A DNA stretch of 64,000 bases from an uncultured Roseobacter sp. (GTDB lineage: Bacteria > Pseudomonadota > Alphaproteobacteria > Rhodobacterales > Rhodobacteraceae). Shown piece after piece: positions 29,817 through 55,070 of this stretch. Position 1 is the first letter of the stretch. Each line of letters begins with the position of its first letter. The stretch covers positions 62,001 through 126,000 of the forward strand of contig NZ_CANMDB010000013.1 in the NCBI RefSeq assembly GCF_947496515.1, written 5' to 3'. The position numbers and the translations under genes are program-made. The notes under the pieces were generated by a model. The model was not told where the DNA came from. It was given only the letters and a program-made list of their open reading frames with translations, and searched no databases.

Positions 29817-31073
29817 ATGAAGAAGACATTGCTTGGTACACTATCGGTTGCCGCGCTGATGAGCGCCGGTGCGACCGCCGCGCAGGCCGAGGCCGTCAAG
29901 ATTGGCGTTCTGGCCACACTCGAAGGAACCTATACGGCCTTGGGCGAAGACGGCGTTCGCGGGATGCGCACGGCATTGGCGCAGATCGGCGATACAGTCG
30001 GCGGCCGCGAGATCGAGCTGATCATCCAGTCCACCGATGCGTCACCGGATTCAGCCCTGCGCGGGGCGCGCAAGCTGGTCGAGCAGGATGGCGTCGATAT
30101 CATCCTGGGGCCACTGTCTGGGTCCGAGGGGATCGCGATCCGGGACTATTCCAAGACCCAGCCGGGTGTGACCTTTATCAATGGCATCTCCGGCGCGATG
30201 GAGACGACATTCGTCACCCCGTCGGAGAACTTCTTTCGGTTCAACACCGATGGGGCGCAGTGGTCGGTCGGTCTGGGCGACTATGCCTTCAATGAGAAGG
30301 GCTATGAGACCGTCGCCACCGTCGGCGAGGACTATTCCTTTATCTACACCCAGGTCTTCGGCTTCACGACAGAGTTCTGTGCCGCGGGCGGTGAAGTGAC
30401 GGAGCGGCTCTGGGTCCCGCTGGGCACCAAGGATTTCGGCTCGATCATCGCGGCGCTGCCCGACGATGTGGACGCGATCTATCTGGGGCTCGGGGGCGGT
30501 GACGCGGTCAACTTCCTCAACCAGTACCAGCAGGCGGGTGGTGATGCCAACCTGATCGGCGGCTCGATCATGGTGGACGGGACGGTCCTGTCGTCTGAAG
30601 GTTCTGCCAAGGATGCGTTGATCGGCGTGCCGTCCGCAGGCCCGCAGGCTGACACCTGGGACGATCCAAAATGGCAGTCCTATGTGAAGGCCTACCAGGA
30701 TACCTTCCCGCCCGATCAGCGGTTTCCGTCCCCGTCGCTGCTGGCCACCGGGTACTATAACGCGACCACGGCCATGGCGCAGTGCATGGACAACGTGAAC
30801 GGCGATCTGAGCGATGGCCACGCGGCCTTCCGGGACTGCCTGAGCACGCTGGAACTGGACGCGCCCAACGGCAAGATCACCCTGGATGAAAACCGCCAGG
30901 CCATCGGCGCCAATTTCGTCTCCGAAGTGATTGAACTGGATGACGGCACGTTGGCCACTCAGATGGTCAAAAAGGTCGATGATGTGAACCAGACGCTGGG
31001 CATCGACAAGGCGGCCTTCACCGCAATCGGTCTGCCGGGGCGTGACACGCCCGAGTGCAAATCCTCCTACTGA
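29817..31073 (+). CDS. ABC transporter substrate-binding protein, branched-chain amino acid type
   Basis: A 418-residue periplasmic binding protein (type I fold, LivJ family): signal peptide MKKTLLGTLSVAALMSAGA to AQA, then VKIGVLATLEGTYTALGEDGVRG and ILGPLSGSEGIAIRDYSKTQ. The ATG has GGGAGGAG upstream; the frame opens earlier at 29652. It is the first gene of the plus-strand island, and its permeases and ATPases lie at 34764-39777. The family binds amino acids, amides, aromatic acids and urea, so the ligand cannot be read from sequence. Confidence 0.93.
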   Translation: MKKTLLGTLSVAALMSAGATAAQAEAVKIGVLATLEGTYTALGEDGVRGMRTALAQIGDTVGGREIELIIQSTDASPDSALRGARKLVEQDGVDIILGPLSGSEGIAIRDYSKTQPGVTFINGISGAMETTFVTPSENFFRFNTDGAQWSVGLGDYAFNEKGYETVATVGEDYSFIYTQVFGFTTEFCAAGGEVTERLWVPLGTKDFGSIIAALPDDVDAIYLGLGGGDAVNFLNQYQQAGGDANLIGGSIMVDGTVLSSEGSAKDALIGVPSAGPQADTWDDPKWQSYVKAYQDTFPPDQRFPSPSLLATGYYNATTAMAQCMDNVNGDLSDGHAAFRDCLSTLELDAPNGKITLDENRQAIGANFVSEVIELDDGTLATQMVKKVDDVNQTLGIDKAAFTAIGLPGRDTPECKSSY

Positions 31074-31153
31074 GGGGGTTGGATCTGTCCGGGCCGGATC
31101 GTGTTGCCCGGACAGGTCCGTCTTACACAACATCTCACCCCGGGGCGGGAGCC

Positions 31154-32179
31154 ATGACGCTCATCACCTATCCCACACGCGTTCACTTTGCGGACGACGT
31201 GATGCAGGAAGCTTTGCACTCTGAACTGGAGCGCGCGGGTGTCGCCGCACCGCTGCTGATCTGCCGCAGTGAACTGAATGAGAGCGAGTTCTCCTTTCGT
31301 GTCCGGGAAGGGGTGCCCGGCAAGACGGCCGTTCAGAGTTTGTTGTTCGACGAAAAGAGCGATCTGCGAGATCTGGCCCGCACGGCGATTGATCTGCGCA
31401 ATACGCCCGATGCGCTGATTGCGTTTGGGTCCGCGCGGGCGATCGAGCTGGCCCGCAAGTGCCGGTTCGCGCTGACCCAGGTGACCGGGACGCGCCCGGC
31501 GCTTTATGCCATTCCGGGTGTTGACGGTCTGCCCGGACCCTGCACGCGCAATCTGGAGACCTGGCGCGCGGGGCTGCCGACGGTGCTGATCTGCGACCCG
31601 ACGTTGACGCTGAATGCGGACCCGGGCCAGTCGTGGCGCAGCGTCGTGCTGAGCCTTGTCCGTTGTGTGGAATCTTACCTGGCGCAGTCTTTCAATCCGC
31701 CTGCCGATGGTATGGCGCTGGATGGGGTAGGGCGGTCCTTGGGCATGTTGCCGCGGATCAACAGCGCCCGGCGGGGCGCCGGTGGCCTTGATCTGCAACG
31801 GGATATGATGGCGGCGAGCCTGAATGCGTCGCTGTCTCAGGAAAAGGGCGTGGGCCCGGCGCTTACCCTCGCCGATGCCCTGGCGCGGGAGCAGCGCGGG
31901 CTGGAAGTGCCGGATATGGCGCGCCTGCTGTTGCCAGAGATCATCCGGCGGGGCAGCGTCAGCGCCGACCGGGCGGACATGTTGCTCAAGCTGCTGGGCC
32001 GGGGGCAGGCCGACCTTGGCGATGCGATGGAGGATGTATTGGCGGGGGCGCCGCTCGCAGCGAGCCTGTCGGATATGGGTGTCGAACGAGCGACCCTGCA
32101 GCAGGTGGCGCAACGCACGCAGGACAAGACCGGGCTTAGCTTTGAGGCTACCTGCGATGTGCTGGCAGCGGTGTATTAG
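31154..32179 (+). CDS. Iron-alcohol-dehydrogenase-fold protein lacking the metal ligands
   Basis: A 341-residue protein that follows the Fe-ADH/maleylacetate reductase layout: a nucleotide-binding half with DALIAFGSARAIELA, then the helical half with FNPPADGMALDGVGR. The usual metal site is missing. Asp185 is kept, but the next ligand position (189) is Leu, and the HxxAH and HG blocks are replaced by GVGPALTLADAL and LEVPDMARLLLP, with no histidines. Either it works without metal, as some maleylacetate-reductase-like enzymes may, or it is not an oxidoreductase. It lies seven bases before an aldehyde dehydrogenase gene. ATG at 31154. Confidence 0.75.
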   Translation: MTLITYPTRVHFADDVMQEALHSELERAGVAAPLLICRSELNESEFSFRVREGVPGKTAVQSLLFDEKSDLRDLARTAIDLRNTPDALIAFGSARAIELARKCRFALTQVTGTRPALYAIPGVDGLPGPCTRNLETWRAGLPTVLICDPTLTLNADPGQSWRSVVLSLVRCVESYLAQSFNPPADGMALDGVGRSLGMLPRINSARRGAGGLDLQRDMMAASLNASLSQEKGVGPALTLADALAREQRGLEVPDMARLLLPEIIRRGSVSADRADMLLKLLGRGQADLGDAMEDVLAGAPLAASLSDMGVERATLQQVAQRTQDKTGLSFEATCDVLAAVY

Positions 32180-32186
32180 GACGGAT

Positions 32187-33617
32187 ATGAAACCGAATTT
32201 GATCAACGGAAAGTGGGAGGCCACGGGCCACGGTGTTGAAAACATCAACCCGTCCGACATCATGGATGTAATCGACGTCTATGCGCAGGCGGGTCGGGCA
32301 GAAACCGAAGCGGCCATTGCCGCCGCTGCCGAGGCCTTTCCCGCCTGGTCATTGAGCACACCGCAGCAACGGCACGATATTCTGCACCGCGCGGGCGACG
32401 AAATCCTGACGCGCTGCGAGGAACTGGCCACCCTGCTGGCGCGGGAGGAAGGCAAGATACTGGCCGAGGCCCGCGGCGAGGTAACCCGTGCAGGGCATAT
32501 CATGTTGTTTTTCGCGGGCGAGGCGCTGCGGCAGCGCGGCGAGCTGAGGGAGTCTGTGCGCCCCGGTGTGCAGGTCGATGTCACGCGCGAACCGGTGGGC
32601 GTTATCGGGGTCATCACGCCGTGGAATTTCCCCATCGCAATCCCCGCGTGGAAAATCGCACCGGCGTTGTGTCACGGCAACACGGTGGTTTTCAAACCGG
32701 CGGAACTGGTACCCGGTTGCGCTTGGGCCTTGGTCGATATCCTCCACCGGGCGGGCATGCCCCCGGGTGTGCTCAATCTGGTGATGGGAAAGGGCGCGGT
32801 TGTCGGCCAGACCATGCTGGAGGATGCCCGTGTCGATGCGATTACCTTCACCGGATCACAGGTCACGGGCGCACGTGTGGCAGCCGCCAGCCTACCTTTG
32901 ATGCGCAAGGTGCAGCTTGAGATGGGCGGGAAAAACCCGTTGGTGGTGCTGGATGATGCGGATCTCGATGTGGCGGTGGACTGTGCGCTGGATGGCGCCT
33001 TCTATTCGACCGGGCAGCGGTGCACGGCCTCCTCCCGTCTGATCGTGACGCGCGGTATCCATGACCGGTTTGTCGCAGCACTGGCCGAGCGTGTGTCGCA
33101 GCTGCGGGTGGGCCCTGCGCTGGCGGAAAACACGCAAATCGGTCCTGTGGTCGATTCGATTCAACTGTCCCAAGACATCGACTACATCGCCACCGCCCGG
33201 CGTCAGGGCGGTGTTTTGCGCGCGGGCGGAGACACCGTGCGATTGCAGACAGAAGGGTACTTTCTGCAACCCGCGCTGATCACCGAGACCCACCCCGACA
33301 TGCAGATCAACCGCGAGGAGGTTTTTGGCCCTGTCGCCTCTGTCATCGCGGTAGAGGATTACGAGGCAGCGCTGGCGATGGCAAATGACACGCCCTTCGG
33401 TCTCAGCGGCGGGATCTGTACCACCAGTCTGAAATATGCCAGCGATTTCAAGCGCAAAGCCCAGGTGGGAATGGTTATGGTCAACCTGCCAACCGCCGGC
33501 GTGGACTATCACGTGCCCTTCGGCGGGCGCAAAGCGTCGAGTTTCGGGCCGCGCGAACAGGGAAGCCATGCGGCGGAGTTCTTCACGGTGGTCAAGACGG
33601 CCTACACGCGGCCCTGA
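32187..33617 (+). CDS. NAD(P)-dependent aldehyde dehydrogenase (alpha-ketoglutaric semialdehyde type)
   Basis: A 476-residue ALDH superfamily enzyme with ITPWNFPIAIPAWKIAPAL, FTGSQVTG, catalytic Glu245 in LEMGGKNP and catalytic Cys279 in GQRCTASSR. The GQRCTASSR loop and overall length resemble 2,5-dioxovalerate (alpha-ketoglutaric semialdehyde) dehydrogenases, though the real substrate may differ. The ATG has AGGA five bases before it. It oxidises an aldehyde to an acid, probably late in the pathway encoded by the surrounding genes. Confidence 0.93.
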   Translation: MKPNLINGKWEATGHGVENINPSDIMDVIDVYAQAGRAETEAAIAAAAEAFPAWSLSTPQQRHDILHRAGDEILTRCEELATLLAREEGKILAEARGEVTRAGHIMLFFAGEALRQRGELRESVRPGVQVDVTREPVGVIGVITPWNFPIAIPAWKIAPALCHGNTVVFKPAELVPGCAWALVDILHRAGMPPGVLNLVMGKGAVVGQTMLEDARVDAITFTGSQVTGARVAAASLPLMRKVQLEMGGKNPLVVLDDADLDVAVDCALDGAFYSTGQRCTASSRLIVTRGIHDRFVAALAERVSQLRVGPALAENTQIGPVVDSIQLSQDIDYIATARRQGGVLRAGGDTVRLQTEGYFLQPALITETHPDMQINREEVFGPVASVIAVEDYEAALAMANDTPFGLSGGICTTSLKYASDFKRKAQVGMVMVNLPTAGVDYHVPFGGRKASSFGPREQGSHAAEFFTVVKTAYTRP

Positions 33618-33671
33618 AGAGTGTCGCTGGCGGGGCTTCGGGTGCTTTGCAGGCGGGCGCCGGGATACCCT

Positions 33672-33700
33672 CAAGTCTGATTTTTGGTCCCCGAGACTTG
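33672..33700. promoter_or_regulatory. Inverted repeat upstream of the AraC gene
   Basis: CAAGTCT (33672-33678) and AGACTTG (33694-33700), a perfect 7-bp inverted repeat with a 15-base spacer, about 95 bases before the AraC-family start. It could be an operator or a weak ALDH-gene terminator. Confidence 0.3.
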
Positions 33701-33793: not shown

Positions 33794-34636
33794 ATGAGTC
33801 AGGCAATCGCAGTGTGCCACGGTGAATTCGGCCGTGCCGCGCTCTACAATCTTAACAAGGCCATCATCACACACGCGCACCGCGAGGGGCATCTGATTTT
33901 CCACGTAGACGGCAACCCGGCACGGGTTCCGACCGGGGATCAGGTGGTCGATATCTCGCCGGGCAAGGCAGCCGCCATCAGCCCGTGGGAGCCGCATGGA
34001 TTCGAGGTCACCGAAGACGGTCACAACATCTGTCTGGTGCTCTACATCAAGCCGATGTGGTTTCTCGAAAACAGCACCTCGGCTGAGTTTGCGCTGAAAT
34101 TCGGGCGCAGCGATCTGGAACTCACCCAGGAGATGCGCGGCCTGGTGAACAGGCTGACGGCACTGCTTCTGGATGACGAGGATCAGACCGGGTTTGACCA
34201 GCTGCTGTTTGGTCTGACCCGCGAGAGCTTTGATCTGTCCTGGCGCAATGATGCGGCGACGTTGCGCAGCAAGACCTATGACCGGTTCAGCGATTTCCGG
34301 GTGCGTCGGTCGTTGCGGCTGATCCAGGAAAAGATGGGGCAGGATATGGACATGGAGCATATGGCCCGGTCCGTAGGGCTGTCGCGTCCGCATTTCTTCA
34401 AGCTCTTCAAGCAGTACATGGGTGTCACGCCGAATGTGTACATGAACACGCTGCGGTCCGAGCGGGCGATCGAAGAGCTGCTACAAACAGAGAAATCAGT
34501 AACGGACATCGCCTTTGATCTGGGCTTTTCCAGCCAGGCGAGCTTTACCCGGTTTTTTTCAAGCAATGTGGGCATCGCCCCGTCGGAATATCGCCGGGTT
34601 GCGCATGTGACCAGCGGCGCTTTTCCGATGATGTGA
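33794..34636 (+). CDS. AraC-family transcription regulator
   Basis: A 280-residue regulator with an N-terminal cupin-like sensor (about 15-110, with HREGHLIFHVDGNPARVP and ISPWEPHGFEV) and two helix-turn-helix motifs at the C-terminus (HMARSVGLSRPHFFKLFKQ and VTDIAFDLGFSSQASFTRFF). The ATG at 33794 has GGGAGG upstream. It lies inside the island, between the aldehyde dehydrogenase and the permease genes, so it probably activates them in response to the pathway substrate. Confidence 0.92.
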   Translation: MSQAIAVCHGEFGRAALYNLNKAIITHAHREGHLIFHVDGNPARVPTGDQVVDISPGKAAAISPWEPHGFEVTEDGHNICLVLYIKPMWFLENSTSAEFALKFGRSDLELTQEMRGLVNRLTALLLDDEDQTGFDQLLFGLTRESFDLSWRNDAATLRSKTYDRFSDFRVRRSLRLIQEKMGQDMDMEHMARSVGLSRPHFFKLFKQYMGVTPNVYMNTLRSERAIEELLQTEKSVTDIAFDLGFSSQASFTRFFSSNVGIAPSEYRRVAHVTSGAFPMM

Positions 34637-34731: not shown

Positions 34732-34767
34732 TTGAAAAGCCCGCCGATGATAGGGGTCGGGGCGTGA
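34732..34767 (+). promoter_or_regulatory. 11-codon leader ORF coupled to the LivH-like gene
   Basis: A TTG codon six bases after GGAGG opens an 11-residue frame whose TGA overlaps the GTG start of the permease gene (GTGA). The permease's own GTG lacks a strong ribosome site, so ribosomes finishing this leader may restart there. Confidence 0.4.
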
Positions 34768-35777
34768 GGCGGTTCGCCAATACGCATCCCGTCTGGACCG
34801 CGCTGATTGCGCTGGTCGTCGTGATCCTGTTGTGGCTGATTTTTGCCATATGGCCGCCCGGTCTGGTCGACGTGATCGGCAGAAAGAAAGTGTTCCTCGC
34901 CGCGCTTTTCAACGGCATCACGCTGGGGGGGCTCTATTTCCTTGTGGCCAGTGGCTTTACGCTGATCTTCGGGCTGATGCGCAACGTGAACCTCGCGCAC
35001 GGAACGCTCTACCTGCTGGGCGGATACATCGGGTTCCACACGGCCGATATCACCGGGTACTGGCTGCTGGCCTTCCCGGTGGCCTTTGTGGTCGTGGGGT
35101 TCTGCGGGGTGCTGCTGCAAGTACTGGTGTTCCGACGAATGGAAGGGCAGGACCTGCGCCAGACCCTTGTGACCATTGGCATTTCGATCGTGATGGCTGA
35201 TCTGATGCTCTGGGGCTTCGGAGGGGACTTTTTCAACATTTCGCCGCCCTCATGGCTCAGCGGCCCGGTGGAGACTTTTCTGGTCACCACAGTCAAGCGC
35301 TCCGGTGATCTGGTCTATATGAAGTATCCGATGGTGCGGATCGTGATCTTTATCGCGGCGGTCGTGGTGGGCGTGGCCATGTGGCTGGCGCTGAACCGCA
35401 CACGGATCGGCATGATGATCCGCGCGGGCGTCGATGACCGTGACATGCTGCAGGCCACCGGCGCACGTATCCAGATCGTCTTTGTCGGGGTCTTTGCCTT
35501 TGGCGCGGGGCTTGCTGGCATCGCGGGTGTGGTGGGCGGGACCTTCCAGTCGGTCGCCCCGGGAGAGGACATCCGATTTCTTCTCGCCTCGCTGGTGGTG
35601 GTGATCGTGGGTGGCATGGGGTCTATCCCCGGCGCGGCTCTGGGCGCGTTGCTGATTGGCTTGGCCGAGCAGTTCGGGTCTGTCTATTTCCCGACGTATG
35701 CGGTGGTTCTGACCTTCCTCATCATGGTTGTCGTGCTGGCGTTCCGGCCACAGGGCCTGATGGGCTCGGAGGGCTGA
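34764..35777 (+). CDS. ABC transporter permease, LivH type
   Basis: A 337-residue polytopic membrane protein. The conserved LivH blocks are FNGITLGGLYFLVASGFTLIFGLMRNVNLAHG, here broken up as NGITLGGLYFLVASG followed by LMRNVNLAHGTLYLLGGY, and GGMGSIPGAALGALLIGLAEQ near the end. An extra hydrophobic segment precedes the usual start. With LivM and the two ATPases it forms the inner membrane importer for the ligand of the binding protein at 29817. GTG start, coupled to a short leader ORF. Confidence 0.93.
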   Translation: MRRFANTHPVWTALIALVVVILLWLIFAIWPPGLVDVIGRKKVFLAALFNGITLGGLYFLVASGFTLIFGLMRNVNLAHGTLYLLGGYIGFHTADITGYWLLAFPVAFVVVGFCGVLLQVLVFRRMEGQDLRQTLVTIGISIVMADLMLWGFGGDFFNISPPSWLSGPVETFLVTTVKRSGDLVYMKYPMVRIVIFIAAVVVGVAMWLALNRTRIGMMIRAGVDDRDMLQATGARIQIVFVGVFAFGAGLAGIAGVVGGTFQSVAPGEDIRFLLASLVVVIVGGMGSIPGAALGALLIGLAEQFGSVYFPTYAVVLTFLIMVVVLAFRPQGLMGSEG

Positions 35778-35781
35778 GGCG

Positions 35782-36848
35782 GTGGTGGACGTGACCCCCG
35801 ATCTGGCACGGAGCCGCCCCCGCAATGGCGGTACATGGGTCGAACGGGTGCCCCCCGCCTACTGGGTGCTGAGCGTGCTTTTGCTGGTCATCCCGGCCTT
35901 TGTGAGCCCCTTCGTGATGTTCCAGATCATGGGATGGACGTTCATCCTCGGGATCATATCGCTGAGCCTGATGTTTCTCGCAGGCTATGGCGGCATGGTG
36001 AGCCTCGCGCAGATGGCCTTTGCGGGGTTCGCGGGCTACATGATGGCGATTTTCGGAGACAGCGCCATCGCGACGATCTCGCAGGGCTGGCCGTGGTGGA
36101 TCGCAATCCCCCTGGCGCTGCTGCTGACGACGCTCTTTGCCACGCTGGTCGGCTGGTTGGCTGTGCGCACCGAAGGCATCTATACCATCATGATCACGCT
36201 GGCGATTGCGGCTGCCTTTTTCTATTTCACCCGGCAGAATTATGACCTCTTCAACGGGTTTCAGGGGTTCAACTCCGTGCTGCCGCCGCAGCTGTTTGGG
36301 GTGGACTGGCGCGGACCCTACGCGTTTTACTATCTGACGCTCGGCTTCGCCGTGCTGGCCTATGCGCTGGTGCTCTATATCAGCCGCGCACCGTTCGGGC
36401 TGAGCCTGCAGGGCGTCCGCGACAATCCGCGCCGCATGGCGGCGTTGGGCTACAATGTGACGGCGCACCGGGTCGCGGCCTACGCTTTTGCGGGCTGTCT
36501 GGCCGGGGTGGGGGGCATATTGCTGACTTGGCAGTCGAGCCAGATCTCGCCCGGCACGGTGGGCATCGGTCCGGCCATCGACATCCTCATCATCGCGGTC
36601 ATCGGTGGTCTTCGCCATCCAATCGGTCCGTTCATCGGGGCTTTCATCTACGTCATTCTCAAGACCTTTGCGGTGGATTTCCTGCTCAGCCTCGGTCTCG
36701 CGGGGGAGCGCTTTCAGCTGGTGATCGGGCTGGGATTTCTGGTGATCGTGTTCTTTTCACCCGATGGCGTGCTGGGCCTGTGGGAGAAGCTCCGCGCGTC
36801 CCGCAACCGCGATCCGCTGACGGGCCAGGACCGCGGGAGGGACCCGCT

Positions 36849-36852
<4 letters not shown>
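35782..36852 (+). CDS. ABC transporter permease, LivM type
   Basis: A 356-residue membrane protein with the LivM blocks ISLSLMFLAGYGGMVSLAQMAFAG, seen as SLSLMFLAGYGGMVSLAQMA, then GWLAVRTEGIYTIMITLAIA, and GVRDNPRRMAALGYN with GGLRHPIGPFIGAF. It pairs with the LivH-type permease four bases upstream. A GTG start is used, and its stop overlaps the next ATG. Confidence 0.93.
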
Positions 36853-39777
<2,925 letters not shown>

Positions 39778-45469: not shown

Positions 45470-45966
45470 TGGCCAAGACACCCGTGACCTTCACCCTCAA
45501 TGATGCGGAAGCGGCGCTTTTCGTCGACCCCGGAGCTGCGCTCGTGGATGTACTGCGGCGCGGGGCAGGGGACCTGACCCCAAAGCAAGGCTGCGCGCAG
45601 GGCACCTGCGGGGCCTGTACGGTGCTGATCGACGGCGTGCCGCATCTCAGCTGTCTGACGCTGGCTGAAACCGTGCAGGGTCGGCATGTGGAGACCACCT
45701 CTGGTCTGGCCGGTGGGCCGGATCTGCATCCTCTGCAAAAGGCGTTTATCGAAGGCTTCGCAGCGCAATGCGGATTTTGTACATCGGGCATGTTGATGGC
45801 GGCGAAATCCTTGCTCGACCAGACACCCGATCCGACCCGTGATCAGGTGATTGAGGCAATTTCGGGCAATCTGTGCCGCTGTACCGGGTATGAGCCGATC
45901 GTGGATGCGATCCTTACCGCGGCGGCTGAAATGCAGGGCCGCCCGGCACAACAGGGGGTGCGCTGA
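45469..45966 (+). CDS. Molybdenum hydroxylase [2Fe-2S] subunit (CoxS/small subunit)
   Basis: A 165-residue subunit with both clusters visible: the plant-ferredoxin-type site GCAQGTCGACTVLIDG plus a distal SC, and the helical site CGFCTSGM plus LCRCTGYEPI. It moves electrons from the molybdenum centre to the FAD subunit. Overlaps on both sides show tight coupling with the medium and large subunit genes. Confidence 0.95.
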   Translation: MAKTPVTFTLNDAEAALFVDPGAALVDVLRRGAGDLTPKQGCAQGTCGACTVLIDGVPHLSCLTLAETVQGRHVETTSGLAGGPDLHPLQKAFIEGFAAQCGFCTSGMLMAAKSLLDQTPDPTRDQVIEAISGNLCRCTGYEPIVDAILTAAAEMQGRPAQQGVR

Positions 45967-47841: not shown

Positions 47842-48864
47842 ATGACCATTCACAAAGGGCGCGGGTTCGCCTGTATCAACTATCCCATCGGTATGAACCT
47901 CGGCGGTGATCCGTCGCAGGCGCTGGTGCATTCCACGCCGGACGGCAAGTTCATGGTGGCGCTGTCGTCGATTGATCTGGGGCAGGGGATGAAGTCCGTC
48001 ACCCGGCAGATCGCCTCCGAGACGCTCGGGGTGCCGGTGGAGGATGTCTATGTGGATACAGCCGATAGCGATACCGGGCCCCATTGCATGGGATCCTTTG
48101 CCTCGCGCGGGACGCACCGCGTTGGCAACGCAGTGATCCGGGCCGCGGCCGAGGCGCGCAAGCAGATGATGGAGGCCGCCGCCGAAGAGCTGGAGGTCAA
48201 CGCCAGCGATCTCGATACCGACGGTGCAGGCAACATCCACGTCAAGGGGGCTCCCGGGCGCTCGATCACGGTGGCGGAGACGGCGATTGCCGCGCAGTTC
48301 AAACAGGGGCGGACCCTGTCGGGCCGGGGCATCTTTCTGGTGCCGCCCAACGAGGCGGATCCGGACACCGGTGACATGACACCGGTTACCTGCTTTGCGC
48401 ATGCAGCACTGGTGGTTGATCTTGAGGTCGATGACGAGACCGGAGAGGTCGAGGTGACCGAGATCAACTCCGCCTATGAGGTGGGCCGCGCGCTGAACCC
48501 GAAACTGGTGGAGCAGCAGCTTATCGGGGGCGCGTGGATGGGGGTCAGCCACGCGCTTTATGAAACCACCGAACCTTATTATCCGCAGCGGGACCACGGG
48601 CCGGAGGATTTCAACACCTATCTGCAACCGGGTCCCGGCCAGATCGTTCCGCATCACGTGGCCGTGCTGGAACGTCCGGCAGAAGACGCTCCTTTCGGTG
48701 GCAAGGGTCCCGGCGAGATGTGCGCGAATCCGGTGCTGCCTGCGGTGGCCAATGCGGTCTATAACGCGGTCGGTGTGCGCTGTGACCAGTTGCCGATCAC
48801 GCCGGAAAAGGTGCTCAAGGGCATCCGTGCCAATGGCGGCGCCCGTCCGCAGGGCATCCGTTAG
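47842..48864 (+). CDS. Molybdenum hydroxylase large subunit, C-terminal half
   Basis: A 340-residue protein equal to the C-terminal molybdopterin-binding half of a CoxL/Xdh large subunit: KGRGFACINYP, SSIDLGQGMKSVTRQIASE, ASRGTHRVGNAV and GGKGPGEMCANPVLPAVANA, in which Glu292 matches the catalytic glutamate. The ATG lies one base after the stop of the N-terminal half, with AGGAAA upstream, so this looks like a coupled split gene and not a sequencing error. The frame is open upstream to 47335, but that extension reads as an arginine-rich shadow of the Pro-rich tail. Confidence 0.9.
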   Translation: MTIHKGRGFACINYPIGMNLGGDPSQALVHSTPDGKFMVALSSIDLGQGMKSVTRQIASETLGVPVEDVYVDTADSDTGPHCMGSFASRGTHRVGNAVIRAAAEARKQMMEAAAEELEVNASDLDTDGAGNIHVKGAPGRSITVAETAIAAQFKQGRTLSGRGIFLVPPNEADPDTGDMTPVTCFAHAALVVDLEVDDETGEVEVTEINSAYEVGRALNPKLVEQQLIGGAWMGVSHALYETTEPYYPQRDHGPEDFNTYLQPGPGQIVPHHVAVLERPAEDAPFGGKGPGEMCANPVLPAVANAVYNAVGVRCDQLPITPEKVLKGIRANGGARPQGIR

Positions 48865-48866
48865 CG

Positions 48867-49748
48867 ATGGTGGTGACCCCGAATATTGCCGGGATCGGCG
48901 ATCCCGCTGCTCTGCAAAAAGCGCTGACCGACGCGCAGTATCTGGCGGATGATGCACTGGCGACCTCCGGCTATCTGGCACTGGCGCTTGGCAAACCCTT
49001 GCTGTTGGAAGGGGCGCCCGGCGTGGGGAAGACCGAAGCAGCAAAGGCGCTTGGCGGGGTGCTGGGGCGCAATGTGGTGCGGCTGCAGTGTTTCGAGGGG
49101 ATTGATGCGGCCGCCGCCCTTTACGAATGGAACTACCCGCGTCAGATGCTCGCCATCCGTCAGGCCGGTGAAGACTATCTGAACCTCTACTCGGAGGATT
49201 TCCTGCTGGAACGCCCTCTGCTGGAGGTTCTGCGCAACCCGACGGCCTCTTTGCTGCTGATCGACGAGATCGACCGTGCCGATCATGAGTTCGAGGCATT
49301 TCTGCTGGAGTTCCTGTCGGATTTCACGATCTCGATCCCCGAAACAGGCACGGTGCGCGCAACGCAGGCGCCGGTGGTTGTCCTGACGTCAAACCGGACC
49401 CGCGATTTGCATGAGGCCTTGCGCCGGCGCTGTGTCTACCACTGGATTGACTACCCGGATGCCGCTTTGGAGGCGCAGATCGTGATGACCCGCGCCAGTT
49501 CGGTGGCGGAGGCAACGGCCCGCGCAGTTGTGGCAAGCGTCGGCCACCTGCGGGCCGAGCCGCTGGCAAAACCGCCCGGTGTCGCCGAAACCGTTGAGTG
49601 GGCCGAGGCGGCGACCTTGCTGAATGCACAGGGCGCGCGCTGGCCCGAGGCATTCCGCCGCTCTATCGGGGTAGCGCTGAAGGATCACGACGACCTGACC
49701 TACATGGCCGATCGTCTGTCCACTGTCCTGCCGGGAGAGGCCGCATGA
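48867..49748 (+). CDS. MoxR-type AAA+ ATPase (CoxD-like)
   Basis: A 293-residue MoxR-family ATPase with Walker A EGAPGVGKTEAAKAL and Walker B SLLLIDEIDRAD. CoxD, its closest functional analogue, works with a VWA protein to mature the metal cluster of CO dehydrogenase. Here it follows the large-subunit genes by two bases and overlaps the VWA gene by four, so a maturation role for the split hydroxylase is likely. Confidence 0.92.
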   Translation: MVVTPNIAGIGDPAALQKALTDAQYLADDALATSGYLALALGKPLLLEGAPGVGKTEAAKALGGVLGRNVVRLQCFEGIDAAAALYEWNYPRQMLAIRQAGEDYLNLYSEDFLLERPLLEVLRNPTASLLLIDEIDRADHEFEAFLLEFLSDFTISIPETGTVRATQAPVVVLTSNRTRDLHEALRRRCVYHWIDYPDAALEAQIVMTRASSVAEATARAVVASVGHLRAEPLAKPPGVAETVEWAEAATLLNAQGARWPEAFRRSIGVALKDHDDLTYMADRLSTVLPGEAA

Positions 49749-50839
49749 CGGCCCCGCGCGCACTGGATCCGTTCCTGCGGTTTGCGCAGGCGCTGCGCGG
49801 TGCGGGCTATCCGGTGTCGCCTGATCAGACCACGGATTTCATCGCCTCTGTCGGGCTTTTGGGCCCGCGCGACATGACGGACATCTACCGGTCGGGCCGT
49901 GCGCTCTTTGCGATCCAGCCGGAGCGGGTGGCGGAATATGACGCGCTCTTTCGGGCAGTGTTTCTGGACCAGGTGATCCAGGCCCCCGCCGATGGCGACG
50001 ACGAAGACGAACTCGACGCCTATGAGCCCCGGTCCGAGCACGTCGAGGTGGAGGCAGATACCGACGACAGCCCCATCGGGGCCGAACCAACCGGGGCCGA
50101 AAAACTGAGCCAGCGGCAGTTGAGCCGAGGCGGATCCGAGGCGCTGCACCGGTTGCTGCGCGAAGGCGCGCGCGCTTTGCCCCGACGGATGTCCTATCGG
50201 CGGCGGCGGGCAAAGAACGGCGATAGGATGGACATGCGGCGCACGCTGCGCGAGGCCGCGAAACGCGACGGCGAGGTGATCCGCCTGCTGCAGACACGGC
50301 GGGTGATGCGGCAGCGTCGGGTTGTGGTGCTGATTGATGTCTCGGGCTCGATGAAGGAGCGATCAGAGGACCTTTTGCGTCTGGCCCATGCGGTGGTGCA
50401 GACGGCGGATCGCGCCGAGGTGTTCACGCTGGGCACGCGTCTGACACGGATCACGCAGTCGCTCAAACCGGATGACCCGGCGCAGGCACTGTCCCGCGCC
50501 AGTCAGGCAATCGCGGATTTTGACGGCGGCACACGGATCGGCGACGCGCTCGGGGCCTATCTGGCGGTACCGCGGTACGCCGGGTTTGCCCGAGGGGCTG
50601 CCGTGATCGTGCTGTCGGACGGGCTGGAGCGGGGAGATCCGGCGGCCATGATCGACGCTGTGCGCCGTCTGTCGCGCACGGCCTGGCGGGTGGATTGGCT
50701 GACCCCGCTGGCCGCTGATCCCGACTACCTGCCACGGACCGAGGGGCTGAGCGCGGTGCTGCCGGTGCTCGATCATCTTGGTGATGGCGACAGCATCGCC
50801 GCGGTCACGGATCATATCCTCACCATGGCGAGGCTCTGA
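49745..50839 (+). CDS. VWA-domain protein (CoxE-like)
   Basis: A 364-residue protein with an acidic linker (ADGDDEDELDAYEP) and a C-terminal von Willebrand A domain carrying the MIDAS motif DVSGSM. It partners MoxR/CoxD-type ATPases in inserting metals or activating molybdenum hydroxylases. The ATG at 49745 overlaps the MoxR stop; the frame opens earlier at 49598 inside that gene. Its stop overlaps the start of the amidohydrolase. Confidence 0.92.
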   Translation: MTAPRALDPFLRFAQALRGAGYPVSPDQTTDFIASVGLLGPRDMTDIYRSGRALFAIQPERVAEYDALFRAVFLDQVIQAPADGDDEDELDAYEPRSEHVEVEADTDDSPIGAEPTGAEKLSQRQLSRGGSEALHRLLREGARALPRRMSYRRRRAKNGDRMDMRRTLREAAKRDGEVIRLLQTRRVMRQRRVVVLIDVSGSMKERSEDLLRLAHAVVQTADRAEVFTLGTRLTRITQSLKPDDPAQALSRASQAIADFDGGTRIGDALGAYLAVPRYAGFARGAAVIVLSDGLERGDPAAMIDAVRRLSRTAWRVDWLTPLAADPDYLPRTEGLSAVLPVLDHLGDGDSIAAVTDHILTMARL

Positions 50840-51714
50840 TGATTGACGCGCACCATCATATCTGGCTGCAACAGGATCTGCCGTGGCTCATGGGCCCGGA
50901 ACAGCCGCGCATCTTTGGCCCCTACCGGGCGATCATGCGCGACTACACCACGCGCGAGTTTCTGGCGGATCTGGCGGGGACCGGTATCACCAAATCCGTC
51001 TACGTACAGGCCAACTGGGCACCAGACCGGTTCGAGGATGAGGTCGCATGGGTGCAGGCGCAGGCAGAGGCCCATGGCACGATTGAGGGGATCGTTGGCT
51101 ACGCGGATTTCACCGGCGATGACGTGCGCCCACAGCTGGACCGGCTGAGGAAATACCCTTTGATGCGGGGCATCCGGCAACAGTTTCACTGGCACGAGAA
51201 CCCGCTCTACCGCTTTGCGCAGGACCCGGATCTGTGCCGCAATCCGGCCGTACAAAGAAACGTGGCCAGGCTGGCCGACTATGGCTGGAGCTTTGATCTG
51301 CAGGTCTTTGCGGGGCAGATGGCGGGCGCGGCTGAACTGGCACAGGCCTGCCCCGGGGTGACGTTCATCCTGCAACACGCCGGGATGAAAGAAGACACCT
51401 CGGACGCCGGGCACGAGCTTTGGACGGAGGGCATGAAACGGCTCGCGGCCTGTCCCAATGTTGTCAGCAAGCTGTCGGCCTTTGGCACATTTATCCACCG
51501 CAATGACCGGGCATTCATCGCGCAGATGGTGCCGGACACTGTCGCGATCTTTGGCGCGGACCGCTGCCTTTATGGCTCGAACTATCCGATCGAAAAGCTC
51601 TGGACCAGCTACCTTGAGCTTTTCAACGCCTTTCAGGACGCCACACGGGATCTGCCCGACGCTCAGAGATCGGCGATTTTCCATGATACCGCAGCCCGCG
51701 TGTACCGGCTGTGA
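50839..51714 (+). CDS. Amidohydrolase-2 family hydrolase (lactonase-like, COG3618)
   Basis: A 291-residue TIM-barrel metal-dependent hydrolase beginning MIDAHHHIW, with RGIRQQFHWHEN, FILQHAGMKED and a late YGSNYPIEKLW. Relatives include L-fuconolactonase and 2-pyrone-4,6-dicarboxylate lactonase, so ring opening of a lactone made after hydroxylation is a fair guess. It overlaps the VWA gene by one base (TGATG). Confidence 0.9.
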   Translation: MIDAHHHIWLQQDLPWLMGPEQPRIFGPYRAIMRDYTTREFLADLAGTGITKSVYVQANWAPDRFEDEVAWVQAQAEAHGTIEGIVGYADFTGDDVRPQLDRLRKYPLMRGIRQQFHWHENPLYRFAQDPDLCRNPAVQRNVARLADYGWSFDLQVFAGQMAGAAELAQACPGVTFILQHAGMKEDTSDAGHELWTEGMKRLAACPNVVSKLSAFGTFIHRNDRAFIAQMVPDTVAIFGADRCLYGSNYPIEKLWTSYLELFNAFQDATRDLPDAQRSAIFHDTAARVYRL

Positions 51715-51735
51715 CGCACTTAAGGGAGTAAGACA

Positions 51736-52584
51736 ATGGCTTTGCAAATTCACGTGCTCGACTACGGCGACATCGAGCTGGAGACGAGTTTTCTGGTGCT
51801 GGGTCACGAATGCGGCCGCACACGCCGGGTGCCTGTCTACGGGTTCCTGATCACCGGCGGCGAATACCCGGTGCTGGTGGATACAGGCTACCGCGACAAC
51901 GCCATCATGGAGAGCCTCGGCATGCGGGGGCTGCAGTTTCACGACAACATGATGGAACAGCAGCTGGGCAGACACGGGCTGAAGCTGGGCGACATCCGCT
52001 ATATCCTGCATACCCATCTGCACATTGATCATGCAGGCCAGGACGACAAGTTCCCCATGAATACCACTGTCGTTCTGAACCGGCGTGAGATGGAGTTCAG
52101 CGTGTCGGGCATCATGTTCCCGCAGTATCCAAAGCCCGACATCAAGCATCTGGTGGACCGGATCTACGAGCCTGAAGCGATCCGGTTCCTGGATCTCGAT
52201 ATCACCACCGCAGAGGAAATCATTCCCGGTGTCTGGTGCGAATACGCAGGCGCCCACACCGAAGGATCCATGAACGTCGTGGTCGAGACAGCCGAGGGGC
52301 TCGCCTGCATTTGCGGTGACGTGATCTATGACTTCAATGATCAGATCGTGAACCACGTCTATACAAACAACTGGATGGAGCCGCGCGTCACCGGCAACCA
52401 TTCCCAATCCAAACGGGAGGAGAAGGGGGCGATCAAGAAGCTGCTGAACAACTATACCTTCCTTTTGCCCATCCATGACAAACCGGCAAAGATCGAGCGG
52501 CAGCGCGTCGTCGGGCGGTTAGGGATGCAGGTGCCCGGGCCGATGACCGAAACACTGCCGGACCGGCACTGGTTTCCGGCATAA
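51736..52584 (+). CDS. Metallo-beta-lactamase-fold lactonase-like hydrolase
   Basis: A 282-residue protein with the dinuclear metal motif HTHLHIDHAG, a later AGAHTEGSMNVVVE and ICGDVIYDF, all typical of N-acyl homoserine lactonase-like enzymes. A GGGAG site precedes the ATG. Quorum quenching is possible, but within a catabolic operon with two other lactonase-type enzymes, hydrolysis of a pathway lactone is more likely. Confidence 0.9.
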   Translation: MALQIHVLDYGDIELETSFLVLGHECGRTRRVPVYGFLITGGEYPVLVDTGYRDNAIMESLGMRGLQFHDNMMEQQLGRHGLKLGDIRYILHTHLHIDHAGQDDKFPMNTTVVLNRREMEFSVSGIMFPQYPKPDIKHLVDRIYEPEAIRFLDLDITTAEEIIPGVWCEYAGAHTEGSMNVVVETAEGLACICGDVIYDFNDQIVNHVYTNNWMEPRVTGNHSQSKREEKGAIKKLLNNYTFLLPIHDKPAKIERQRVVGRLGMQVPGPMTETLPDRHWFPA

Positions 52585-52647
52585 CAATTGCGTGTCAAGG
52601 TAGCTGCCCGCATATCAACAGGCTCCAGCCGATGGAAAGGCCCAGCC

Positions 52648-53466
52648 ATGACCGATGATGTTCGCGCGCAATATGCCACGAATAGCAACCTGACAAAGCG
52701 CGCCAACTTGCATGTCGCCTACAGCCGCGTCGGGTGGTTTGACTGGTTGGCCCGGCGCATGGCGCTGCCGGAGGGGGCGGCCGTGCTTGATGTTGGCTGC
52801 GGACCGGGCTGGATGTGGCGGCGTATGGGGGCATCGCTGGCCCCGGGGTTGCGGCTGACGCTGCTCGATACCTCTTCGGCTATGGTGAAAGAAGCGCAGG
52901 CAGCGCTTGCGGCCGAGACACATTGGGGCAGCGTTGAGGGTGTCGAGGGCGATGCATTGGATCTGCCTTTCGCGGCGGAGAGCTTCGATGCGGTGGTGAT
53001 GATGCACATGCTCTACCACGTGCCCGATATTCCCGCCGCGTTGGCTGAGGCCGCCCGTGTCTTGCGCCGGGGCGGGCGGATCTATACCACCACCAACACC
53101 TGCGAGAACCTCGTTGAGCTGACCGAGATGACAGGCACGGTTTTTGGCGTCGAGCCCTACGATATCGCTGCAATGATCTTTTCGCTCGATGATGCAGAGC
53201 GATTGCTTGCGCGCGATTTCGAGGCCGTGACACGGCACGATCTGCAGGAGGCGTATCGCTGCGATGATGCGGATATCATCCTCGATTTTCTGTTGTCGAT
53301 GCCACCAGCCAATGCGGGCACGCCCGAGCAGAAGTCGGCCCTGCGCGCGCTGGTCGAGACACGCCTTGAGAGCGCCGGTGGTGTGATCGCGGCGTCCAAG
53401 CAAACCGGACTGGTTGCTGCGATCAAACCGGCAAACGATCCTCTTTCCGACGGAGACGTGCGATGA
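52648..53466 (+). CDS. Class I SAM-dependent methyltransferase
   Basis: A 272-residue methyltransferase with motif I VLDVGCGPGWMWRRM, an acidic SAM-binding strand end (LTLLDTSSAM), GDALDLPFAAESFDAVVMMHM and an ARVLRRGGRIYTTTN segment. The ATG at 52648 follows GGAAAGG; an upstream in-frame start at 52588 has no site. Its target is unknown; it may modify a pathway intermediate. It overlaps the next gene by four bases. Confidence 0.88.
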   Translation: MTDDVRAQYATNSNLTKRANLHVAYSRVGWFDWLARRMALPEGAAVLDVGCGPGWMWRRMGASLAPGLRLTLLDTSSAMVKEAQAALAAETHWGSVEGVEGDALDLPFAAESFDAVVMMHMLYHVPDIPAALAEAARVLRRGGRIYTTTNTCENLVELTEMTGTVFGVEPYDIAAMIFSLDDAERLLARDFEAVTRHDLQEAYRCDDADIILDFLLSMPPANAGTPEQKSALRALVETRLESAGGVIAASKQTGLVAAIKPANDPLSDGDVR

Positions 53467-55070
53467 CACATACCGCATTGGCTGATGCGTTTCACACGCT
53501 GATCGACGTGAACGCACCGCTGCACCATCTTGGCAGCGGTTTTACGTTCACCGAAGGGCCGATTTGGCACCCCGAAGAGCAGATGCTGCTGTTTTCGGAT
53601 ATGCCCGGGGATGTGCGCCGCTGCTACCGCCCCGGCCAAGGGGTATCAGAGGTGCAGCGTCCCACGCACAAGGCCAACGGCATGACCTATGATGCGGATC
53701 TCCACCTGCTGGTCTGCGAACATGCTACCTCCTCCGTGGTGCGCCTCCGCACCGATGGCACGCGCGAGACGCTGTGCACACATTTCGAGGGTAAGGAACT
53801 CAACAGCCCCAATGACATTGTTGTCGGGGCGGACGGCAGCATCTACTTCACGGATCCGACCTATGGCCGGATGGAACACTTCGGCGTGCCCCGCCCGCTG
53901 GAACAGGGGTTTCAGGGGGTTTACCGACTGCCACCGGCGCATACTCCGGGCGATGAGCCGGAGCTTGTGGTTGAACGCAGCCTGTTTTCGCAACCGAACG
54001 GGCTGTGCTTTTCGCCTTGCGGAAAGTGGATGTGGGTCAACGATACCGAACAAGCCAATATCCGCATGTTCGACGTGGCCGCAGACGGGCGTCTGACCCA
54101 CGGTCGTGTCTTTGCCGGCGGGATCGCGGATGATGCGCTGGCCGGGGTGCCTGACGGCATGAAGGCGGATAAGGACGGGAATGTCTGGGTGACGGCGCCC
54201 GGCGGCATCTGGGTCTATTCCTTCGAAGGGCAGTTGCTGGGCAAGGTGCGCTGCCCTGAACTGGTAGCCAATATGCACTGGGGCGGGCCGGATTGGTCCA
54301 CGCTCTACATCTGCGCGACCACATCGCTCTATGCGCTCGACACCAAAACCCGAGGGCGCGAGGAACCTTTCATGCGCGGTATCACACACACTCCGGCCGC
54401 GCCGGTGGTGCGGTCTCAGGGAACAGTATCCATGACCAATGACCTGCTGATACAGGATCGCCTTGATTTCCGGATTGATCCTGCCCGTACCGCGATGCTT
54501 CTCCAGGATCTGCAGAACGACGTTATGATCGACGGCGGGGCGTTTGCCGCGACCGGCTCGCCCGATCATGCGCGCCAGCAAAACGTGGTGACCAATGCCC
54601 GCAGGCTGGCCGATGCACTGCGTGGACGGGGCGGGATGATCATTCACGTCTGGATGGTGCTGGAGCCTGGCGCGCCCTATCTGTGTCAGCACGCGGAATT
54701 GCAGCGGGGCTTGAAGGACAACAAGGCTCTTGTGCGCGGCACATGGGGGGTGGCGCCCGCTGCCGGGCTGGAGCCGCAGGCAGGGGATCTGGTGGTCGAG
54801 AAAATGAGCATGAGCGCCTGGGAAACCTCCCGCCTGGACGCATATCTCAGCCATGGCGGGCGCGATACGATCATCAATACCGGTAGCTGGACCAACATGA
54901 GTGTTGAGCATACGGCGCGGACCGGTGCGGACAAAGGATACCGGATGATCGTCCCGGAAGATGCCTGCTCCACCATGAACGCTGACTGGCACCGGGCGTC
55001 AATCAACTACGCCATGCAGAATGTCGCCACTGTCACCCGGACGGACGCGGTGATCGCCGCGCTGAGCTGA
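53463..55070 (+). CDS. SMP-30/gluconolactonase domain fused to an isochorismatase-like hydrolase with Ser at the nucleophile position
   Basis: A 535-residue fusion. Residues 1-310 are an SMP-30/gluconolactonase beta propeller (FTFTEGPIWHPEEQMLLFSD, NSPNDIVVGADGSIYFTDPTYG, FSQPNGLCFSP). Residues 325-535 are an isochorismatase-like cysteine-hydrolase domain with catalytic Asp349 (LLQDLQNDV) and Lys447 (VVEKMSMSAW), but the usual CV of the third motif reads SV: Ser480 in TNMSVEHTAR. The fusion suggests sequential lactone and amide (or imide) cleavage. Ser480 raises the question whether the second domain is an active amidase. Last gene of the island. Confidence 0.9.
   Translation: MTHTALADAFHTLIDVNAPLHHLGSGFTFTEGPIWHPEEQMLLFSDMPGDVRRCYRPGQGVSEVQRPTHKANGMTYDADLHLLVCEHATSSVVRLRTDGTRETLCTHFEGKELNSPNDIVVGADGSIYFTDPTYGRMEHFGVPRPLEQGFQGVYRLPPAHTPGDEPELVVERSLFSQPNGLCFSPCGKWMWVNDTEQANIRMFDVAADGRLTHGRVFAGGIADDALAGVPDGMKADKDGNVWVTAPGGIWVYSFEGQLLGKVRCPELVANMHWGGPDWSTLYICATTSLYALDTKTRGREEPFMRGITHTPAAPVVRSQGTVSMTNDLLIQDRLDFRIDPARTAMLLQDLQNDVMIDGGAFAATGSPDHARQQNVVTNARRLADALRGRGGMIIHVWMVLEPGAPYLCQHAELQRGLKDNKALVRGTWGVAPAAGLEPQAGDLVVEKMSMSAWETSRLDAYLSHGGRDTIINTGSWTNMSVEHTARTGADKGYRMIVPEDACSTMNADWHRASINYAMQNVATVTRTDAVIAALS

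What the first reader, a model, noticed from the sequence alone, without database searches (positions are those of the whole stretch)
29817..55070. A 25-kb one-way gene island that looks like an undescribed catabolic pathway with its own importer, regulator, scaffold and split molybdenum hydroxylase
Twenty-one genes on one strand, many overlapping by 1-8 bases, combine a Liv-type importer, AraC regulator, aldehyde dehydrogenase, degenerate Fe-ADH-fold protein, Tm-1-like pair, giant SPFH protein, two SRPBCC proteins, a split Mo hydroxylase with MoxR/VWA factors, three lactonase-type hydrolases, a methyltransferase and an isochorismatase-like domain. Seen: gene families and overlaps. Known: Mo hydroxylases hydroxylate heteroaromatic rings, and lactonases and amidases open the products. 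Inferred: uptake and breakdown of a cyclic N- or O-heterocyclic compound ending in an aldehyde that is oxidised. I know of no described pathway with this set.
Basis: partly seen in the sequence, partly recalled or inferred. Interest (0 to 1): 0.8.

Follow-up and report, generated by a model that had tools for sequence, protein, structure and literature searches.

The report
Flotillin-linked molybdenum hydroxylase uptake operon
A 25-kilobase bacterial gene cluster found in many unrelated marine and soil bacteria appears to import a ring-shaped compound and oxidise it at the membrane, using a molybdenum enzyme whose peculiar tail is seen only where a membrane-scaffold gene sits in the same operon.

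Summary
The island is real: 22 same-strand genes, 29817-55070; from LivH on no gap exceeds 63 nt. It is conserved as a unit: of 51 relatives with full flanks, 44 keep all 14 genes from LivF::UPF0261 to SMP30-isochorismatase, and all 51 keep the order of those present. The methyltransferase is not conserved. The Mo subunits form one clade crossing orders and are patchy: 14 of 390 genomes of the order, 0 of 9 others of the genus.

It joins two older modules. A: a split Mo hydroxylase, nearest in PDB to split nicotinate dehydrogenase 3HRD, which also occurs alone. B: a Liv importer fused to UPF0261, with flotillin and SRPBCC proteins; without A, SRPBCC2 is fused to a quinone-reductase-like enzyme.

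Where A and B are joined, the Mo N-half carries an 86-202-residue tail ending near F-x-S-G-x-R-R-R (87 of 87). Ten loci without B beside A lack it, including two genomes that hold B elsewhere. Best reading: a membrane-tethered import-and-oxidation assembly with a docking peptide. The substrate is unproven, most likely N-heteroaromatic.

The parts
29817..31073 (+). Liv-type substrate-binding protein
   Evidence: Peripla_BP_6 E 9e-53; nearest PDB chains 4zpj, then 4ey3/4eyg/4eyk
31154..32179 (+). Fe-ADH-fold protein that has lost its metal ligands (pseudo-enzyme)
   Evidence: no Pfam hit; weak 4-hydroxybutyrate dehydrogenase NCBIfam hit; 0 of 4 ligands
32187..33617 (+). aldehyde dehydrogenase, nearest named family 2-oxoglutarate semialdehyde dehydrogenase (below cut-off)
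33794..34636 (+). AraC-type regulator with N-terminal cupin
34764..35777 (+). LivH-type permease
   Evidence: BPD_transp_2
35782..36852 (+). LivM-type permease
   Evidence: BPD_transp_2
36849..37646 (+). LivG-type ATPase
   Evidence: ABC_tran
37639..39777 (+). LivF ATPase fused to UPF0261 (Tm-1 N-terminal-like)
   Evidence: fused in 70 of 70 loci where SPFH module and both parts are in view
39781..40605 (+). TIM-barrel PEP_hydrolase-like protein (Tm-1 C-terminal-like)
   Evidence: PF09370 E 6e-129; PDB 2p10 E 1e-112
40630..43806 (+). giant SPFH/flotillin protein with an 11-residue repeat in its coil
   Evidence: Band_7 and Flot; identity 0.34 at lag 44 against at most 0.174 in 200 shuffles
43806..44243 (+). 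SRPBCC protein 1
   Evidence: Polyketide_cyc2; the start at 43806 overlaps the stop of SPFH
44246..44689 (+). SRPBCC protein 2
   Evidence: Polyketide_cyc2; nested among SRPBCC2 domains that elsewhere are fused to an oxidoreductase
44690..45469 (+). FAD subunit (CoxM-like)
   Evidence: FAD_binding_5
45469..45966 (+). 2Fe-2S subunit (CoxS-like)
   Evidence: Fer2_2
45966..47840 (+). N half of split Mo subunit, with long tail
   Evidence: Ald_Xan_dh_C and MoCoBD_1; best PDB hit 3hrd_A
47301..47837 (+). variable Pro/Ala-rich tail of the N half, ending SSPFTSGFRKR
47842..48864 (+). C half of split Mo subunit
   Evidence: MoCoBD_2; best PDB hit 3hrd_B
48867..49748 (+). MoxR-type AAA ATPase (CoxD-like)
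49745..50839 (+). VWA protein (CoxE-like)
   Evidence: VWA_CoxE E 2e-45
50839..51714 (+). amidohydrolase_2, nearest named family L-fucono-1,5-lactonase (below cut-off)
51736..52584 (+). metallo-beta-lactamase-fold lactonase-like protein
52648..53466 (+). methyltransferase-like gene, local insertion, not part of the conserved unit
   Evidence: 1 of 51 loci, other strand
53463..55070 (+). SMP30 lactonase fused to isochorismatase-like hydrolase
   Evidence: SGL and Isochorismatase; present in 50 of 51 loci

Best explanation
It is a horizontally spread catabolic operon that works as a membrane-tethered import-and-oxidation assembly. The Liv importer takes up a cyclic, probably N-heteroaromatic or aromatic-acid-like compound. 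Its ATPase is covalently fused to UPF0261, which works with the TIM-barrel protein encoded next to it. A flotillin forms a scaffold at the inner membrane. SRPBCC proteins hold the oxidoreductase at the membrane or near the quinone pool. A split XDH-type Mo hydroxylase, matured by the MoxR and VWA proteins, hydroxylates the ring; its C-terminal tail peptide docks it on the flotillin/UPF0261 module. Lactonase- and amidase-type enzymes then open the product. Shown here: gene content, fusions, conservation, module merger, tail and its pattern of occurrence, active-site residues. Inferred: physical assembly, docking partner, electron route, substrate and step order.
For: Conserved set and order. 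Both Mo halves match 3HRD nicotinate dehydrogenase best, keep the Glu and Arg of the heterocycle enzymes in the N half and the Glu in the C half, and lack the VAYxCSFR loop of CO dehydrogenase (residue roles recalled). Chain of physical hints: LivF::UPF0261 fused in 70 of 70 SPFH-module loci and in 0 of 14 UPF0261 places without SPFH beside them; UPF0261 and its partner co-evolve and are fused in plants (PMC5028733, passages); SRPBCC2 is fused to a quinone-reductase-like enzyme in 7 of 7 B-only loci, and the island SRPBCC2 is nested among those (support 98/83 and 96/73). CoxG-like proteins anchor soluble dehydrogenases to membranes (PMC11962113, passages). The tail is in 87 of 87 island enzymes and in 0 of 10 others, is coding (codon-position differences 150, 78, 501 over 1065 codons), and its end is conserved (0.62 against 0.17-0.25), also in the 9 of 9 loci where the terminal codons lie too far from the next start to serve as its ribosome site. 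In two genomes with both modules unlinked the Mo enzyme has no tail.
Against: In 63 of 71 representatives the RRR codons hold a Shine-Dalgarno-like core for CoxL-C, so part of the RRR conservation is at the DNA level. The island is one clade, so tail and module B may have come together once and need not be functionally tied. Two of the ten tail-less loci (L177, L178) are contig ends where the upstream side was not seen, although their genome has no SPFH match at E 1e-20. The island SRPBCC proteins match Polyketide_cyc2 and not the Pfam CoxG family. Nearest named families of the ALDH, amidohydrolase and (in B-only loci) FAH enzymes belong to sugar-acid pathways. No binding, localisation or substrate data.
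Confidence: 0.48

Rival explanations
1. An ordinary catabolic operon without a physical assembly: soluble Mo hydroxylase and hydrolases, with a flotillin that only affects membrane fluidity. The tail is a spacer whose end is shaped mainly by the ribosome-binding site of the next gene.
For: Shine-Dalgarno-like core in the last codons in 63 of 71 representatives; AGG, a codon rich in that signal, is the commonest at -3 and -2. Most of the tail is variable. Clades share inherited features.
Against: The F..SG part lies upstream of the site; Gly at -5 in 67 of 71 uses four synonymous codons. RRR stays in 9 of 9 loci freed of the site, with codons such as CGA CGA CGA. Tail absent where the enzyme stands alone.
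Confidence: 0.3
2. The substrate is a sugar-like or O-heterocyclic lactone former rather than an N-heterocycle; the Mo enzyme oxidises an aldehyde or hemiacetal, and three lactonases with an aldehyde dehydrogenase finish a non-phosphorylative sugar-acid type route.
For: Nearest NCBIfam models: L-fucono-1,5-lactonase, 2-oxoglutarate semialdehyde dehydrogenase, and 2,4-didehydro-3-deoxy-L-rhamnonate hydrolase for the FAH enzyme of B-only locus L037. SDR genes follow the island in 12 of 63 loci, an FAH cluster in 2 of 63; SDR-FAH-SDR in Yoonia.
Against: All these scores are far below the curated cut-offs. Aldehyde-oxidase type PDB chains rank below nicotinate dehydrogenase. Nearest binding-protein structures after 4zpj are R. 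palustris aromatic-acid receptors (ligands recalled).
Confidence: 0.3
3. Aerobic CO dehydrogenase with its accessory genes.
For: CoxM/S/L, MoxR and CoxE-like genes, SRPBCC proteins.
Against: Active-site loop reads AMRGFG, not VAYxCSFR, in the alignment with M. smegmatis CoxL; CO dehydrogenase models score far below cut-off; Mo subunit is split.
Confidence: 0.02

Closest known systems
Nicotinate dehydrogenase of Eubacterium barkeri (NdhF, S, L, M; PDB 3HRD)
   Same: Four polypeptides with the Mo subunit split into N and C halves; best PDB hit for both halves. The review PMC10331938 (passages) gives 23, 33, 37 and 50 kDa subunits and two Mo proteins.
   Different: No tail in the 425-residue NdhL chain; no MoxR/VWA, flotillin or UPF0261 known to me there (recalled); about 30% identity by eye, not measured.
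3-Hydroxypyridine dehydrogenase HpdA of Ensifer adhaerens HP1
   Same: Mo hydroxylase on an N-heterocycle for which a CoxG-like anchor was proposed (PMC11962113, passage). I recall that its SRPBCC component is a separate subunit.
   Different: The paper (PMC7499040) is not held, so identity with the Mo-only Rhizobiaceae loci was not tested.
CO dehydrogenase cox cluster with CoxG
   Same: MoxR (CoxD), VWA (CoxE) and small SRPBCC-fold proteins beside a Mo hydroxylase; CoxG is described as quinone-binding and as a membrane anchor (PMC13240472 and PMC11962113, passages).
   Different: No CO active-site loop; SRPBCC proteins are PF10604, not CoxG; Mo subunit split.
Tomato Tm-1 / Tm-1-like proteins
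   Same: UPF0261 plus TIM-barrel partner.
   Different: In the island UPF0261 is fused to an importer ATPase; the plant protein fuses it to the TIM barrel and blocks a virus (PMC5028733, passages).
Flotillin / SPFH scaffolds
   Same: Band_7 and Flot domains; SPFH proteins form membrane-attached cages (PMC11260169, abstract and introduction).
   Different: Window protein is 1058 residues with a long 11-residue-repeat coil; cage formation not tested.
Encapsulin cargo-loading peptides (analogy only, recalled)
   Same: Short conserved C-terminal peptide after a variable Pro-rich linker.
   Different: None of the 22 genes got an encapsulin-type hit in the scans made (the methyltransferase was not put through Pfam); the sequence motif differs.

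Membership tests
XDH-family molybdenum hydroxylase | FAD, 2Fe-2S and both Mo-cofactor-binding domains encoded together | tested here: met
XDH-family molybdenum hydroxylase | Catalytic Glu in both halves and the Arg of the RGFG loop | tested here: met
   HMMER alignments with human XOR and NDH and with NDH and HBCR; residue roles recalled
Split nicotinate dehydrogenase (NdhL/NdhM) | Mo subunit as two chains, cut between MoCoBD_1 and MoCoBD_2 | tested here: met
Split nicotinate dehydrogenase (NdhL/NdhM) | Hydroxylates nicotinate; labile selenium | not testable with these tools
   needs enzyme assay
Mo-Cu CO dehydrogenase | VAYxCSFR active-site loop | tested here: not met
   AMRGFG at that place
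CoxG | Match to the CoxG Pfam family | tested here: not met
   both SRPBCC proteins hit only Polyketide_cyc2
CoxG | Membrane anchoring or quinone binding | not testable with these tools
   needs fractionation
Flotillin | SPFH (Band_7) domain plus flotillin C-terminal domain | tested here: met
Flotillin | NCBIfam FloT equivalog score | tested here: not met
   37 bits against cut-off 700
Iron-containing alcohol dehydrogenase (functional) | Four metal ligands Asp, His, His, His | tested here: not met
   0 of 4 in the window; 6 of the 31 island-adjacent copies compared keep all four, 10 keep none
Tm-1-like pair | UPF0261 and PEP_hydrolase-like genes side by side | tested here: met

The most novel reading that the evidence does not exclude
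The island encodes a cargo-loaded flotillin metabolon: the C-terminal F-x-S-G-x-R-R-R peptide of the Mo hydroxylase is a docking signal for a flotillin/UPF0261 scaffold physically fused to the importer, and the scaffold accepts exchangeable oxidoreductase heads (quinone-reductase-like enzyme through SRPBCC2 fusion, Mo hydroxylase through the tail). UPF0261 and the TIM-barrel protein, the bacterial parts of plant Tm-1, would be its substrate-handling core.
Probability: 0.27. Interest if true: 0.85.

Novelty: new variant of a known kind. Interest (0 to 1): 0.62.

Why it matters
UPF0261 and its TIM-barrel partner are widespread and have no established function in bacteria that I know of; this operon ties them to an importer, a flotillin and an oxidoreductase and so gives a testable setting. 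If the tail docks the enzyme, it would be a case of a bacterial flotillin with a defined enzyme cargo and address signal. The operon also marks a widely shared, unassigned catabolic capacity of marine and soil bacteria.

Tried and rejected
CO dehydrogenase: rejected on the active-site loop. Frameshift or assembly error as cause of the split subunit: rejected. RRR as a pure Shine-Dalgarno effect: considered, partly true, not sufficient. Methyltransferase as a pathway enzyme: rejected. Tail motif on other proteins: in the window's genome the corrected pattern occurs once, at the N-half end, with 0 in the reversed control. A first pattern was wrongly made (it demanded CGN at -3), missed the window's own site and hit one other place. 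In 9 other island genomes the corrected pattern gave 8 hits in 5 genomes; 3 are at the N half, 5 lie elsewhere and were not examined, and 4 genomes gave none since their ends are spaced differently. So the peptide is not shown to be unique in all genomes. The homarine idea led nowhere. Literature; among the listings seen none describes this cluster, and subscription papers are mostly not held.

Superseded steps: (loci not oriented; replaced by 58), the LivF fusion table (picked LivG; replaced by 84), the start-distance part (found nothing; replaced by 78; script stopped after one locus; replaced by 16).

Not done: the fold comparison tools; PADLOC and PHROGs scans; FeADH copies of the 14 of 44 genomes for which no locus was returned.
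Full report
OBSERVATION. The window holds 22 genes on the + strand from 29817 to 55070. Families were checked by Pfam and NCBIfam. From LivH (34764) to the end, spacing is -8 to +63 nt; upstream of LivH there are gaps of 176 and 127 nt around the AraC gene, so the regulator and the upstream genes may have their own promoters.

CONSERVATION. A search with the C half of the Mo subunit (alignment A1) gave 406 confirmed relatives among 437 candidate stretches, of which the best 80 were kept. Of these 80, 51 have full flanks. In those 51, counts per gene are: CoxL-N, CoxL-C, MoxR, CoxE and amidohydrolase 51; LivF::UPF0261, SPFH, SRPBCC1, SRPBCC2, CoxM, CoxS and SMP30-isochorismatase 50; PEP_hydrolase-like 49; MBL 46; methyltransferase 1. 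All 14 core genes are present on the same strand in 44 of 51, and order is kept among those present in 51 of 51. Of the 7 exceptions one (L074) has a run of 1262 N upstream, five lack MBL (one of these also lacks the PEP_hydrolase-like gene) and one lacks SMP30-isochorismatase. The flanks do not reach the upstream genes in most of these loci, so importer counts there are not informative. The upstream part is seen in L036, L038, L044, L135 and L180-L186. The Fe-ADH-like gene lies 3-7 kb from the locus edge in 29 of the 30 genomes compared, and 117 kb away in one; 44 genomes had been searched.

DISTRIBUTION. With the C half as probe: 14 of 390 genomes of the order (13 of 139 genera; E up to 1e-90; own genome counted; 0 of the 9 listed same-genus genomes), 16 of 398 of the phylum sample and 8 of 385 of the class sample, both at E up to 1e-70. 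Named carriers include Roseobacter-group bacteria, Roseibium, Aurantimonas coralicida, Mesorhizobium, Shinella, Aquibaculum and gammaproteobacterial assemblies (Granulosicoccaceae, Arenicellales). In a tree of 103 concatenated halves the island-type rows form one clade (SH-aLRT 100) in which gammaproteobacterial and alphaproteobacterial rows are mixed, which suggests horizontal transfer. Several of these are metagenome bins, where misbinning is possible. The tool warns of long branches, chiefly among the unsplit paralogues.

TWO MODULES. Module A alone: five Rhizobiaceae-like loci of one family (L172-L176) read AraC, SRPBCC, CoxM, CoxS, CoxL-N, CoxL-C, MoxR, CoxE, amidohydrolase with no importer, flotillin or UPF0261 beside them. 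Nonomuraea has CoxM to amidohydrolase, and the haloarchaeon Salinigranum has CoxM to CoxL-C plus a cyclase-family gene and an SRPBCC gene. The f148 (Rhizobiaceae-like) loci are sister to the island clade. Module B alone: of the 17 other PEP_hydrolase-like genomes found among 190 of the class, 3 have the island, 6 have importer, LivF::UPF0261, flotillin and two SRPBCC genes without the Mo enzyme, and 8 have neither. A Variovorax plasmid is a seventh case, and two genomes of the Mo-only set have module B on another contig. Order differs in one B-only locus (L045). In 7 of 7 B-only loci SRPBCC2 continues into a zinc-ADH-superfamily domain (Pfam run on four of them), nearest to NADPH:quinone reductase, though below the cut-off (264 and 239 bits against 348). 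In the two further loci the same domain lies downstream of SRPBCC2 in the same frame, but stops between them were not checked. In the SRPBCC tree the island SRPBCC2 (15 of 15 rows, one clade, 96/96) is nested among the fused ones (98/83, then 96/73). The simplest reading is that the island arose when a module-B operon exchanged its fused oxidoreductase for module A.

THE SPLIT AND THE TAIL. Both halves match nicotinate dehydrogenase 3HRD best in PDB: 188 bits (next 162) and 147 bits (next 134). In island-type enzymes the N half runs on for 86-202 residues past the conserved core. Of 90 loci examined 86 gave a complete N half; with the window 87 of 87 have the tail, 86 end in RRR and the window in RKR. 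Among 71 representatives (tails under 70% alike) Gly is at -5 in 67, Ser at -6 in 61, and Phe at -8, -9 or -10 in 65. Mean pairwise identity is 0.62 in the last ten residues and 0.17-0.25 in the five blocks before. The tail is coding: 150, 78 and 501 differences at codon positions 1, 2 and 3 in 7 pairs. Control for the ribosome site: the RRR codons often read AGG AGG CGC, and a Shine-Dalgarno-like core is there in 63 of 71. In 9 loci whose next start lies 11 or more nt after the stop, RRR is kept in 9 of 9 and often uses other codons.

WHERE THE TAIL IS ABSENT. Ten loci with the split enzyme but no module B seen beside it end 13-25 residues past the core, without the motif: L172-L179, L133 and L134. 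L136 (Sinorhizobium) was left out because its N half is interrupted. For L177 and L178 the upstream side is a contig end, but no SPFH match at E 1e-20 was found in that genome. Two of these genomes (G667, G728) carry a complete-looking module B elsewhere, with its own quinone-reductase-like head, and their Mo enzyme still has no tail. So the tail goes with operon linkage, not with mere presence of a flotillin. LivF::UPF0261 is fused in 61 island and 9 B-only loci where both parts were in view (12 island loci were cut at the edge, 18 of 91 gave no usable match), and not fused in 14 of 14 UPF0261 places without SPFH beside them, a second UPF0261 copy in L041 aside. These counts are not independent events.

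PSEUDO-ENZYME. In 31 island-adjacent Fe-ADH-like proteins (window, Yoonia and 29 loci) the number with 4, 3, 2, 1 and 0 of the four ligands is 6, 3, 3, 9 and 10 (the 32nd row, L162, with 3 ligands, is the one 117 kb away). So an active ADH was part of the operon and has been degenerating in place in several lineages.

MECHANISM. Import, then ring hydroxylation by a membrane-tethered Mo hydroxylase, then hydrolysis. The Mo enzyme keeps the residues of heterocycle hydroxylases. SRPBCC/CoxG-like proteins are shown to anchor soluble dehydrogenases (PMC11962113, passages), and CoxG is described as a quinone carrier (PMC13240472, passages). Flotillins form membrane cages (PMC11260169, abstract and introduction). 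In the window the flotillin has one N-terminal hydrophobic stretch followed by YRRSTK, which by the positive-inside rule puts its body in the cytoplasm (my reading of the sequence). Substrate: N-heteroaromatic is favoured by the Mo enzyme's relatives, aromatic-acid-like by the binding protein (ligands recalled), sugar-acid-like by the hydrolases. I put N-heteroaromatic or aromatic acid at about 0.55.

VERDICT. Observation confirmed; interpretation partly supported. A new variant of a known kind (Mo-hydroxylase catabolic operon), with an unusual scaffold module and a candidate docking peptide that deserve experiment.

Noticed in passing
L039:139-2052, L041:17728-19518, L138:6070-7920: PEP_hydrolase-like domain fused to a sigma-54 activator (or its lid) and a Fis-type HTH, close to other UPF0261/PEP_hydrolase genes. 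This suggests the TIM barrel can act as a ligand sensor.
   Followed up: partly
window 31154-32179: Fe-ADH-like gene that keeps its place in the operon while losing its metal ligands in several lineages.
   Followed up: yes
window 52648-53466: Methyltransferase-like gene inserted between MBL and SMP30 genes, absent from relatives.
   Followed up: partly
window 12393-21147: Haem uptake genes: ABC ATPase, periplasmic binding protein, TonB receptor, HemS/ChuX, FecCD permease.
   Followed up: no
window 9384-11051: Protein with RTX calcium-binding repeats.
   Followed up: no
window 25297-26970: Protein with a beta-lactamase-hydrolase-like phosphatase domain.
   Followed up: no
window 57033-63361, - strand: Gamma-glutamyltranspeptidase and oligopeptide ABC transporter genes.
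   Followed up: no
L096, L100 between CoxL-N and CoxL-C: A small reading frame beginning CHCGAVR lies between the two Mo halves, so the halves can be separated by another gene.
   Followed up: no
L199, L200: Module B copies in which no PEP_hydrolase-like match was seen beside LivF::UPF0261.
   Followed up: no
L084 and L078 downstream of the island: Gfo/Idh-like and TIM-barrel isomerase-like reading frames follow the island in a few relatives (4 and 3 of 63 loci; names are my reading of the sequence).
   Followed up: no
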